From NCBI RefSeq assembly GCF_001445655.1, contig NZ_LNBE01000008.1, positions 114,803-178,802 of the forward strand: a stretch of 64,000 nucleotides of DNA, read 5' to 3'. Positions 47,615 through 55,443 of the stretch are shown here, piece after piece (position 1 is the stretch's first letter; the number at the start of each line of letters is the position of its first letter). Both the position numbers and the translations under genes were made by a program. A model generated the notes under the pieces. It saw only the letters and a list, made by a program, of their open reading frames with translations, made no database searches and was not told the DNA's origin. The DNA comes from Streptomyces roseifaciens. Its GTDB lineage: Bacteria; Actinomycetota; Actinomycetes; Streptomycetales; Streptomycetaceae.

Positions 47615-48733
47615 TTACGGCATGGCGCCGGCCAGGACCCGCCGGTCGGCCCGGGCCGCCTCGAAGCCGTCCCGTACGAGCCTGCGCAGCACTTCCTCCG
47701 CCCTGAGCGGCGCCACGCCCAGCTCCACCTCCAGCCCGGAAGCACCGCCGCTGCGCGGCGACACGTCGTCCGCCCCGATGCCGAAACCGGCCACCGAGGC
47801 GAGCATCCGCGCCAGCTCCCCCGGCCTGTCCCCCAGGGCCACCCGCAGCCGCACCGGGCCCGCGGCCTGTGCACCGCCGCGCCCCTGGATCGCGCCCATC
47901 CCGGCGATGCCGCGATCGAGGAGGTCGACCAACCGCGCAAGGCCGGGCGAGTCGTCGCCCGCGGGGGCGGCCGACAGCTCGTTGAGCGCGGCCAGCAGGT
48001 CGGAGAGGTCGGCCTGGAGCTCCCGCAGGACTCCGGCCACGGCGGCGGCGTTGGACTGCAGGATGTCCCCCCACAGACGGGCGTCGCCCGCGGCGATGCG
48101 GGTGACGTCGCGCAGCCCCTGCCCGGCGAGCCGGGCCGCCTCGCGCGGGGCGTGCTGCAGGCGCGCGGCCATGAGGCTGGCCACCACGTGCGGCACGTGC
48201 GAGGTCAGTGCCACGGCGCTGTCGTGAGCCTGGCTGCCCATCAGCACGGGCACGGCGCCGCACAGCGCGATCGTCTCCAGGGCCCGGTTGAGGGTCTCCT
48301 GCGAGGTGGCCTCCGACGGGGTGAGCACCCAGGAGCGGTCCTCGAAGAGGTCCGCCCGGGCGGCGAGCGGCCCCGACTTCTCCCGGCCGGCGAGCGGGTG
48401 GCCGCCCACGTAGGAGGAGGCGTCGGCGAGACCGGCCAGTGCGTGCCGCTCCGGCGCGGCCTTCACGCTCGCGACGTCGGTGTAGGCGCGGGCGAGGCCG
48501 CGCAGCTGCTGCTCGGCGAGGACCGGGCCGAGCCGGCCGGGCGGCACCGCGAGCACCGCCAGGTCCACCGGCCCGGCGGGGGCGGCCAGGACCCCGGCGC
48601 CCAGCGCCGCCGCGGTCCTCGCCGCCGTCTCGTCCTCGTCCATGAGGTGGACGGTCACGCCGTGGCGGCTCACCGCGAGCCCCACGGACGTGCCGATCAG
48701 TCCGGTGCCGACTACTGCCATCGTGCGAATCAC
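47615..48733 (-). CDS. tyrA: Prephenate dehydrogenase with ACT-like domain
   Basis: 372 residues from a GTG. The Rossmann NAD site is VVGTGLIGTSVGLAV; the catalytic His lies in YVGGHPLAGREKSG and the second conserved His in LTSHVPHVVA. A C-terminal ACT-like domain (about 300-365, VRLRVALGDRPGELARMLAS) would bind a feedback effector. It converts prephenate to 4-hydroxyphenylpyruvate with NAD. Streptomyces genomes normally carry tyrA elsewhere, so this is probably a dedicated second copy (not checked). It is the last gene of the run P450 - HPPD - SDR - CoA-transferase - flavoenzyme and can supply the substrate of the HPPD paralogue. Confidence 0.88.
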   Translation of the reverse strand: MIRTMAVVGTGLIGTSVGLAVSRHGVTVHLMDEDETAARTAAALGAGVLAAPAGPVDLAVLAVPPGRLGPVLAEQQLRGLARAYTDVASVKAAPERHALAGLADASSYVGGHPLAGREKSGPLAARADLFEDRSWVLTPSEATSQETLNRALETIALCGAVPVLMGSQAHDSAVALTSHVPHVVASLMAARLQHAPREAARLAGQGLRDVTRIAAGDARLWGDILQSNAAAVAGVLRELQADLSDLLAALNELSAAPAGDDSPGLARLVDLLDRGIAGMGAIQGRGGAQAAGPVRLRVALGDRPGELARMLASVAGFGIGADDVSPRSGGASGLEVELGVAPLRAEEVLRRLVRDGFEAARADRRVLAGAMP

Positions 48734-48796
48734 GCGTTCACGCCCTCTTTCGGATGGAGCCGGTGAAGCCCTGTCCGGCGCGGTGCCGCGCCCGGG

Positions 48797-54102: not shown

Positions 54103-54213
54103 CGGTCGTTCCCGTCTCTTTCGTGGGGAAGAGGAGTGAGGGGTGAAGGGCGGCGGGGCCGGGTGCCCGGCGGCGCGGGCCGATGGGCGGACGAGCCGGG
54201 CGGCGCGGGCCGG

Positions 54214-55443
54214 TCAGCCGCTGATGCGGGACCAGGTGACGGGCAGGGCGTCGAGCCAGCGCACGACCATGCCCTGCTTCCAGCTCAGCTCCTCCTCGGG
54301 GACCGCGAGCCGCAGGCCCTCGACGCGGCGCGCGAGCGCGGCGATGGCGACCTGCAGCTGCATGCGGGCCAGGTGCGCGCCGGGGCAGAAGTGGGCGCCG
54401 AGGCCGAAGCCCAGGTGCGGGTTGGGGCCGCGCTCGAAGTCGAGTTCCTCGGGCGAGGAGAAGACGTCCCGGTCCCGGTTGGCCGCGCAGATCGAGCCGA
54501 CGACGGCCTCGCCCGCCCGCACGACGGTCCCGCCGAGCTCGACGTCCTCGGTCGCGTAGCGGGGGAACATCGTGGAGGTGTGGAAGGGGGTGTAGCGGAT
54601 CAGCTCCTCGACGGCCGCGGGCACGAGGCCGGGGTCCGTGCGCAGCCGGTCGAACTCCTCCGGGTGCTGCATGAGCACGAGCACGAAGTTGGCGAGGGTG
54701 AGCACGGTGTTCTGCACGCCGGGGGCGAGCAGGCGCACGGCCACGAGCACGAGCTCGTCCTCGGTGAGCCGCTCCGGGTCCTCGTCCCGGGCCTGGATCA
54801 TGCCGTTGAGGAGGCCGTCGGTCGGCTCGCTGCGCCGGATGGCGACCAGCTTCGCCATATAGCTGTGCAGATTCCCCATGTATTCATTCATCTTCGCCGG
54901 CGGGAGCGATGTGGTGGAAACCACCGCCTGCGACCATTCCTGGAAATCCGCACGGTCCTCGAAGGGAACGCCGAGCAGTTCGCAGATCACCGTGACGGCG
55001 AGCGGGTTGATGAATTCGGCCATCAGGTCGGCCGGGGATTCCCCGGATTCCTTGCGGGACAATGCGTCGAGCAGTTCGTCGGCTATCCGCTCGGTGAGCG
55101 GGCGCAGCCGCTCGGTCTGCCGCGGGGTCAGGCCGGCGTTGGCGACCCGGCGCAGCCGGGTGTGGTCCGGCGGGTCCATCGACAGCAGTCCGCGGTCGAC
55201 GACCTCCTCGCCGATCCGCGGTTCGTCCCGGTGGAGCGTGGCCGCCCGGCTGAAGGTGTTGTCCGTCATCACCTTGCGGATGTCGGCGTAGCGGGTGGCC
55301 AGCCAGGCCTCGTCGCCGTACGGCAGCTGCACCCGGCTCAGCGGCTCGCTCTCGCGGAGCTCCGCGTAAAGCGGGTCCAATTCGAGTCCGGCCGGATCGC
55401 CGAATGGGTAGGACCGCACCTGGAGTGTCTTGTCGTCATTCAC
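54214..55443 (-). CDS. Cytochrome P450 with altered I-helix
   Basis: 409 residues from a GTG (VNDDKTLQVRSYPFGDP); GGACG lies upstream. An in-frame ATG at 55500 would overlap the promoter and was rejected. The heme loop GFGLGAHFCPGAHLAR (Cys353), the ExxR (EELIR) and the late FERGPNPH are intact. In the I-helix the usual A/G-G-x-D/E-T is LAPGVQNT: Gln244 and Asn245 replace the acid-alcohol pair used for oxygen activation. Such replacements occur in P450s that do unusual reactions (couplings, dehydrogenations) or rely on substrate groups for proton delivery. It is the first gene of the aromatic-pathway transcript. Redox partners are not encoded nearby. Confidence 0.9.
   Translation of the reverse strand: MNDDKTLQVRSYPFGDPAGLELDPLYAELRESEPLSRVQLPYGDEAWLATRYADIRKVMTDNTFSRAATLHRDEPRIGEEVVDRGLLSMDPPDHTRLRRVANAGLTPRQTERLRPLTERIADELLDALSRKESGESPADLMAEFINPLAVTVICELLGVPFEDRADFQEWSQAVVSTTSLPPAKMNEYMGNLHSYMAKLVAIRRSEPTDGLLNGMIQARDEDPERLTEDELVLVAVRLLAPGVQNTVLTLANFVLVLMQHPEEFDRLRTDPGLVPAAVEELIRYTPFHTSTMFPRYATEDVELGGTVVRAGEAVVGSICAANRDRDVFSSPEELDFERGPNPHLGFGLGAHFCPGAHLARMQLQVAIAALARRVEGLRLAVPEEELSWKQGMVVRWLDALPVTWSRISG

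What the first reader, a model, noticed from the sequence alone, without database searches (positions are those of the whole stretch)
47615..55443. Compact tailoring-only aromatic pathway between guaB1 and rpe
Seen: six genes in one direction (P450, HPPD paralogue, SDR, CaiB/BaiF CoA-transferase, Tat-exported AknOx-like oxidase, prephenate dehydrogenase), two of the joins being ATGA/GTGA overlaps, with a good promoter in front of the P450 and regulators plus an exporter beside them. Known: TyrA makes 4-hydroxyphenylpyruvate and HPPD consumes it. Inferred: a dedicated route from prephenate to an oxidised aromatic acid, activated as a CoA thioester and finished outside the cell. There is no PKS, NRPS or terpene gene, so cluster finders keyed on such cores would probably miss it. 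The block sits between genes that I recall as near neighbours in S. coelicolor (guaB1 and rpe).
Basis: partly seen in the sequence, partly recalled or inferred. Interest (0 to 1): 0.78.

Follow-up and report, generated by a model that had tools for sequence, protein, structure and literature searches.

The report
Compact tyrosine-pathway cluster with altered oxygenases
A rare, self-contained set of bacterial genes includes a second copy of a tyrosine-breakdown enzyme whose active site is changed, apparently at a position also hit in a human metabolic disorder, so these bacteria may make an unusual oxidised compound from a tyrosine precursor on purpose.

Summary
The block is real: P450, HPPD paralogue, SDR, CaiB and exported AknOx-type oxidase, plus MFS, LysR and CGNR genes, recur together in two other genomes (taken for Kitasatospora kifunensis and Streptomyces sp. 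FH025) in other surroundings. The prephenate dehydrogenase occurs only in the guaB1-rpe copies (window, S. hiroshimensis): an add-on. guaB1-SorC-rpe is conserved synteny with a variable gap. No catabolic operon or described cluster with this gene set was found.

Two catalytic motifs are changed clade-wide. The 9 HPPD paralogues have Asn and Ser/Thr where the 112 other listed HPPDs have Pro and Asn; mandelate synthases differ again. The Asn-to-Ser position aligns with residue 241 of a mammalian HPPD; an Asn-to-Ser HPPD variant (residue number recalled) causes human hawkinsinuria, where mutant HPPD yields quinolacetic acid. The cluster P450s have Gln-Asn where 114 of 114 other listed relatives have the Glu-Thr proton-relay pair.

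Best explanation: a minimal natural-product pathway whose HPPD-like enzyme makes quinolacetate (a p-quinol) or another non-homogentisate acid, then tailored, exported and oxidised outside. Cluster: well supported. Product: inferred, about even odds.

The parts
54214..55443 (-). cytochrome P450; haem Cys motif present; I-helix acid-alcohol pair (Glu-Thr/Ser) replaced by Gln244-Asn245
   Evidence: Pfam p450; alignment to MycG; Gln-Asn-Thr in the 6 listed clade members (one is the window's own protein), Glu-Thr-Thr in the 114 other listed relatives
52927..54102 (-). HPPD paralogue (here HPPD2): metal ligands His197, His280, Glu359 kept; Asn253 and Ser255 replace the Pro and Asn of HPPD
   Evidence: TIGR01263 426.2 bits, cut-off 277; closest structure HPPD 1t47; residue comparison
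52026..52874 (-). short-chain dehydrogenase/reductase
   Evidence: Pfam adh_short; NF004824 323.2 bits, cut-off 298
50476..52029 (-). 517-aa CaiB/BaiF-type class III CoA-transferase-like protein; Asp374 aligns with the Asp of the family; GTGA overlap with SDR
   Evidence: CoA_transf_3, alignments, AF2 model: residues 246-513 on the class III CoA-transferase fold
48797..50479 (-). berberine-bridge-type FAD oxidase of the TamL/AknOx group with twin-arginine start; His104 and Cys164 for bicovalent FAD; ATGA overlap with CaiB
47615..48733 (-). prephenate dehydrogenase, one of two full-length copies in the genome; seen only in the guaB1-rpe copies of the block
46939..47541 (+). ABATE/CGNR zinc-finger regulator, divergent from the exporter; conserved in the other two complete copies
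   Evidence: Pfam; conservation
45613..46869 (-). MFS exporter resembling the Cmx/CmrA group (below that model's cut-off); start codon uncertain
   Evidence: conservation
44588..45559 (-). LysR-type regulator
   Evidence: Pfam; conservation
55704..55738 (-). terminator-like hairpin (16 pairs) between the SorC-type gene and the P450
   Evidence: 4 terminator-like sites found in the stretch, 2.4 expected in shuffles

Best explanation
A minimal natural-product gene cluster. TyrA2 (where present) makes 4-hydroxyphenylpyruvate from prephenate. HPPD2 decarboxylates and oxidises it, but because the residues equivalent to S. avermitilis Pro243 and Asn245 are Asn and Ser/Thr, it most likely releases a non-homogentisate product, first candidate quinolacetate (1-hydroxy-4-oxo-cyclohexa-2,5-dienyl acetic acid, the p-quinol made by mutant HPPD in human hawkinsinuria). 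The SDR, the CaiB-type CoA-transferase and a P450 without the usual proton-relay pair then modify it; the MFS protein exports it; the exported flavin oxidase oxidises it outside the cell. Shown here: gene content, conservation of the set, the changed motifs, intact iron, haem, FAD-linking and CoA-transferase key residues. Inferred: order of steps, product of HPPD2, CoA activation, export, and that a P450 with this motif does something other than ordinary hydroxylation.
For: Eight genes (CGNR, MFS, LysR, P450, HPPD, SDR, CaiB, oxidase) are together in the window, S. hiroshimensis (L001), L106 and L105 (same record as L003), in two arrangements and three surroundings. HPPD2: Asn253 in 9 of 9 and Ser (7) or Thr (2) at 255, against Pro in 112 of 112 and Asn in 112 of 112 of the other listed HPPDs (120 listed of 7,922 hits); the genome keeps a normal HPPD. 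A mandelate-synthase-like protein has Thr and Val there. The Asn matters: AtHPPD N282A loses about 160-fold in kcat/Km (PMC6750108 passages). Position 241 (Asn) of chain 1sqi aligns with Ser255. [quoted passage not shown] P450 motif: Gln-Asn in the 6 clade members, Glu-Thr in 114 of 114 other listed relatives. Equal contig lengths link HPPD2 and P450 in Actinomadura roseirufa (30,441) and HPPD2, P450 and an oxidase in a metagenome (9,992).
Against: HPPD2 still scores as HPPD and keeps the other residues of the published substrate network, so it may still make homogentisate; the neighbouring Pro-to-Asn change could compensate. That the hawkinsinuria Asn is residue 241 is recalled; I saw the title and two citing texts, not the paper. 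TyrA is not part of the set outside the guaB1-rpe copies. The metagenome oxidase P0169 lacks a twin-arginine start as predicted, so export is not shown for every copy. CaiB relatives sit in operons with a catabolic look.
Confidence: 0.5

Rival explanations
1. Natural-product cluster, but HPPD2 is an ordinary homogentisate-forming HPPD duplicate and the pathway starts from homogentisate.
For: TIGR01263 score well over cut-off; 2-His-1-Glu, the pocket Ser, both Gln and the C-terminal Asn-Phe kept.
Against: Two neighbouring pocket positions fixed in the 112 other listed HPPDs are replaced in all 9 paralogues; a second normal HPPD is present in the genome. The TIGR01263 score does not separate HPPD from mandelate synthase: the S. 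noursei mandelate-synthase-like protein passes it too (311.1 bits).
Confidence: 0.2
2. HPPD2 acts on another 2-oxo acid, or makes a mandelate, and the cluster builds an aryl-alpha-hydroxy acid derivative.
For: The same two positions also separate mandelate synthase from HPPD (Thr/Val; Ser221 and Val223 line the pocket of S. coelicolor Hms, PMC3720870 passages).
Against: Overall sequence is far closer to HPPD 1t47 (555.8 bits) than to Hms 2r5v (207.5 bits); Asn and Ser/Thr match neither signature; no FMN hydroxyacid oxidase or aminotransferase gene in the block.
Confidence: 0.14
3. HPPD2 is an inhibitor-insensitive self-resistance copy protecting against an HPPD-inhibiting product of the cluster.
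For: Duplicate of a housekeeping enzyme inside a cluster; the changed Pro corresponds to a residue near an HPPD inhibitor (Pro280 of AtHPPD, PMC6750108 passage).
Against: It sits in the middle of the biosynthetic genes; HPPD is not known to me to be essential in Streptomyces (recalled); the Asn change should hurt catalysis.
Confidence: 0.06
4. Catabolic or detoxification operon for an aromatic compound, induced through LysR.
For: 16 of the 46 other CaiB loci lie in operons of acetoacetate-decarboxylase-family, 3-hydroxyacyl-CoA-dehydrogenase and CaiB genes, many with a LysR gene; the exporter resembles Cmx/CmrA drug pumps.
Against: No ring-cleavage, hydratase or thiolase gene in the block; the oxidase is of the exported antibiotic-tailoring TamL/AknOx group; none of those 46 loci showed the partner set (a few are short), nor did the two 72-73% CaiB loci L110 and L111.
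Confidence: 0.1

Closest known systems
4-Hydroxyphenylpyruvate dioxygenase (HPPD, TIGR01263; 1t47)
   Same: 69% identity to the genome's own core HPPD, metal ligands
   Different: Pro and Asn of the substrate pocket replaced by Asn and Ser/Thr in the whole clade
Hawkinsinuria HPPD (human Asn-to-Ser variant)
   Same: Asn to Ser at what is recalled to be the same residue; mutant enzyme yields quinolacetic acid
   Different: a disease allele, against a fixed, clade-wide state inside a cluster; here a neighbouring Pro-to-Asn change too
Hydroxymandelate synthase, and HPDL, the human family member that also makes 4-hydroxymandelate (PMC13111500 passages)
   Same: HPPD-family enzymes with another product from the same substrate
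   Different: other pocket residues (Hms tested, HPDL not); the hydroxyphenylglycine cassette (Pdh, HmaS, Hmo, HpgT; recalled) has oxidase and aminotransferase genes that are absent here
TamL / AknOx / hexose oxidase / CrmK / GilR flavin oxidases
   Same: bicovalent-FAD residues; late-stage oxidases of antibiotics
   Different: no polyketide, glycopeptide or aglycone genes accompany it here
MycG-type P450s
   Same: closest solved structures
   Different: acid-alcohol pair replaced by Gln-Asn
Jacaranone-type p-quinols (plants; recalled)
   Same: jacaranone is the methyl ester of quinolacetic acid, the predicted product type
   Different: no bacterial pathway is known to me; chemical analogy only

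Membership tests
HPPD family (TIGR01263) | score above curated cut-off over the full model | tested here: met
   426.2 bits against 277, positions 4-353 of 353; a mandelate-synthase-like protein also passes (311.1), so this alone does not show HPPD activity
HPPD family (TIGR01263) | 2-His-1-Glu iron site | tested here: met
   His197, His280, Glu359
canonical homogentisate-forming HPPD | Pro-x-Asn of the substrate pocket (Sav 243/245, At 280/282) | tested here: not met
   Asn-Val-Ser in the window; 9 of 9 paralogues deviate, 112 of 112 other listed HPPDs conform
canonical homogentisate-forming HPPD | forms homogentisate | not testable with these tools
   needs an enzyme assay
hydroxymandelate synthase | Thr/Ser-x-Val/Ile at the same positions | tested here: not met
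   Asn-x-Ser; S. noursei Hms-like protein (my reading: Thr-Met-Val, next to an FMN_dh gene)
hydroxyphenylglycine cassette | Hmo-type FMN oxidase and aminotransferase beside the HPPD-family gene and Pdh | tested here: not met
   not among the ten genes between guaB1 and rpe; elsewhere in the genome not tested
AknOx/TamL bicovalent flavin oxidases | FAD-linking His and Cys | tested here: met
   His104, Cys164 aligned with TamL, AknOx and hexose oxidase 2wdw
class III CoA-transferase | catalytic Asp and fold | tested here: met
class III CoA-transferase | transfers CoA to an aryl acid | not testable with these tools
   needs an assay
monooxygenase P450 | haem-thiolate Cys | tested here: met
   GFGLGAHFCPG
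monooxygenase P450 | acid-alcohol pair of helix I | tested here: not met
   Gln244-Asn245; MycG has Glu-Ser, 114 of 114 other listed relatives Glu-Thr
tyrosine-catabolic operon (hppD with homogentisate dioxygenase and fumarylacetoacetase; recalled) | those two genes in the block | tested here: not met
   not among the Pfam families of the ten genes between guaB1 and rpe

The most novel reading that the evidence does not exclude
A third product class of the HPPD family, beside homogentisate and hydroxymandelate: a quinolacetate synthase that has fixed, as a biosynthetic function, the kind of Asn-to-Ser change that causes human hawkinsinuria, working with a P450 lacking the acid-alcohol pair in a small cluster (eight conserved genes, nine with TyrA) that makes an exported p-quinol (jacaranone-like) metabolite matured outside the cell.
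Probability: 0.4. Interest if true: 0.87.

Novelty: new variant of a known kind. Interest (0 to 1): 0.72.

Why it matters
If true, it gives a biological purpose to a reaction that I know only as an enzyme fault, adds a third product class to a much-studied herbicide-target family, and shows a type of cluster without PKS, NRPS or terpene core that core-keyed cluster finders would tend to miss (not tested here). The motifs N-V-S/T (HPPD) and Q-N-T (P450) are usable search keys. One enzyme assay on 4-hydroxyphenylpyruvate decides the main claim.

Tried and rejected
Catabolic reading, tested through CaiB relatives: 49 loci in named genomes; three (L001-L003) carry the partner genes, 46 do not at the thresholds used (some contigs are short, L048 is 4 kb). 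Of the 46, 26 have a 3-hydroxyacyl-CoA-dehydrogenase-type gene in the stretch and 16 of these an acetoacetate-decarboxylase-family gene as well (families checked on single members). So the CaiB family is shared but the set is not. CaiB at 72-73% (L110, L111) and oxidases at 61-72% (L107-L109, L112, L113) have no partner genes around them, save one LysR hit of 30% in L113. Plasmid-borne block: 13 plasmid records match some part, 0 cover 80%; CaiB relatives on plasmids: one at 60-80%, 1,097 below 60%. Literature (open-licence PMC only): the six-term gene-set search gave one review, seen in the listing only, searches gave 0, one search listed 30 of 55 and 15 of 22 papers, with no such cluster in titles or abstract starts; (residue terms) 4 papers. 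More members in the family of G811: 0 of 35 genomes, no control, so it shows little. AF2 of CaiB: residues 1-245 were barely tested by the fold comparison. My first gene caller called antisense frames and was replaced. A regex matched 0 of 120 and was corrected, where it still missed P0006; one search counts by alignment. HPPD tree (28 of the 112 P-N proteins, one Amycolatopsis HPPD, one Hms-like, 9 paralogues): the 29 P-N rows are set apart by a branch with support 97/100, but the paralogue group itself needs 2 changes, so one origin is not shown. The motif pattern demands Phe and chosen codons and would miss, for example, the Leu form in L106.
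Full report
WHAT IS THERE. The window is from an 8.64-Mb genome (13 contigs, window at C8:114803-178802, the end of that contig); the closest annotated relatives of its proteins are Streptomyces of the hiroshimensis/rectiverticillatus/abikoensis kind. SDR/CaiB and CaiB/oxidase overlap by 4 bases. A terminator-like hairpin at 55738-55704 stands between the SorC-type gene and the P450 (4 such sites in the stretch, 2.4 expected); no sigma-70-like promoter was found.

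CONSERVATION. CaiB was the probe in named genomes: 49 loci. tblastn of the block's proteins found partner genes in three: L001 S. hiroshimensis (same site and order, 90-99% identity), L002 (contig end: part of HPPD, SDR, CaiB, oxidase) and L003. The other 46 showed generic P450, SDR or MFS hits of 26-38% and one oxidase at 49%, some 6 kb away. From equal contig lengths I take them for K. kifunensis, FH025 (the record of L003) and ST-888 (the record of L002); these are therefore not extra copies beyond L002 and L003, save G605. In G605 and G559 the order is CGNR divergent from MFS, LysR, P450, HPPD, SDR, CaiB, oxidase, with no TyrA in the 30 kb and 16 kb read; in the window the CGNR/MFS/LysR group is at the other end and TyrA is added. 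Identities to the window there: LysR 59-60%, MFS 72-74%, CGNR 57-58%, oxidase 71-74%, CaiB 80-81%, SDR 71-72%, HPPD 73-74%, P450 75-76%. HPPD2 and P450 of Actinomadura roseirufa share a contig length of 30,441, and a metagenome contig length of 9,992 is shared by HPPD2, P450 and an oxidase, suggesting two more copies; I could not read these contigs.

RARITY. CaiB above 75% identity: the own genome only, of 392 genomes of the genus (23 of 392 have some match at E 1e-60, the next at 73%) and of 150 relatives (one other, at 72%, passed that threshold). A DNA pattern for the HPPD2 motif: 1 of 394 genomes of the class, the own one; the pattern is narrow.

THE SITE. guaB1 was found in 20 of 21 genomes searched; I read the side towards rpe in nine. 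In 8 of the 9, guaB1 is followed by the SorC-type gene and rpe; the interval guaB1 to SorC is 247, 394, 493, 992, 1467, 1515, 3763 and 5013 bases, against 11.4 kb in the window. In the ninth (L126) rpe was not in the stretch.

HPPD2. The genome has a normal HPPD at C4:111322 (450.7 bits) and this one (426.1 bits) (a third, weak hit of 37.5 bits is below cut-off), and two full TyrA hits plus a short one. HPPD2 keeps the iron ligands (His197, His280, Glu359). Against the 120 listed relatives of 7,922 hits, eight listed proteins and the window protein form a set in which residue 253 is Asn in 9 of 9 and residue 255 Ser in 7 and Thr in 2; the other 112 have Pro and Asn without exception. The 5 structures whose alignments are shown all have Pro-Ile-Asn. 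Counting from the conserved Ser240 the positions are +13 and +15, as Pro280 and Asn282 are from Ser267 in Arabidopsis HPPD. There Ser267-Asn282-Gln307-Gln293 form the hydrogen-bond network around the substrate, and N282A costs about 160-fold in kcat/Km (PMC6750108; abstract and passages seen). In S. coelicolor Hms the residues at the same spacing from Ser208, Ser221 and Val223, line the pocket (PMC3720870, passages). In an S. noursei protein that I read as Hms, because it precedes an FMN-dehydrogenase-family gene, they are Thr and Val; it too passes the TIGR01263 cut-off. So HPPD has P-N, mandelate synthase T/S-V, and this clade N-S/T. In one search Ser255 aligns with Asn at position 241 of chain 1sqi, the rat enzyme (recalled). 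Brownlee et al. [quoted passage not shown] That the human residue is Asn241, and that the variant was studied in the Streptomyces enzyme, I recall; I could not open the paper. On this basis quinolacetate is the first candidate product.

P450. The closest solved structures are MycG, then entries named cytochrome P-450, nocardicin N-oxygenase and CftA. Helix I reads PGVQNT where MycG has AGYEST. Of 120 listed relatives (of 1,064 hits), the six at 70% identity or more (one is the window's own protein) have Gln-Asn-Thr, the other 114 Glu-Thr-Thr; the L106 copy has Gln-Asn-Thr too. The acid-alcohol pair serves proton delivery in forming compound I, and its change is linked with peroxygenase behaviour or epoxidation (PMC10750395, PMC9112060; passages). 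That this P450 does unusual chemistry is an inference.

VERDICT. The cluster is real, conserved in two genera as the tool groups them (and perhaps a third), compact and rare. The product is unknown; quinolacetate is a definite, cheap-to-test prediction.

Noticed in passing
L006-L008, L010, L014, L015, L018-L024, L027, L029, L032: Relatives of the CaiB protein (60-70%) lie in a recurrent operon with a 3-hydroxyacyl-CoA dehydrogenase and an acetoacetate-decarboxylase-family gene, often with a LysR gene beside it; the pathway is not known to me.
   Followed up: partly
   Followed up: partly
G000:C2:557857-559527 (L107): The same genome encodes a 71% identical paralogue of the oxidase next to a cupin gene and an SDR-like gene; a similar trio is in L112.
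   Followed up: no
window 44388-55778: The interval between guaB1 and the SorC-type gene is a variable spot: 0.25-5 kb in eight relatives, 11.4 kb here.
   Followed up: yes
window 55444-55700: The region upstream of the P450 is much poorer in G+C (0.545) than the block (0.733).
   Followed up: no
P0169 (9,992-base metagenome contig): Oxidase of a probable further copy of the cluster lacks a twin-arginine start as predicted; mis-called start or a non-exported form.
   Followed up: no
L118 (S. noursei genome): A second HPPD-family gene reads as a hydroxymandelate synthase directly followed by an FMN-dehydrogenase-family gene.
   Followed up: partly
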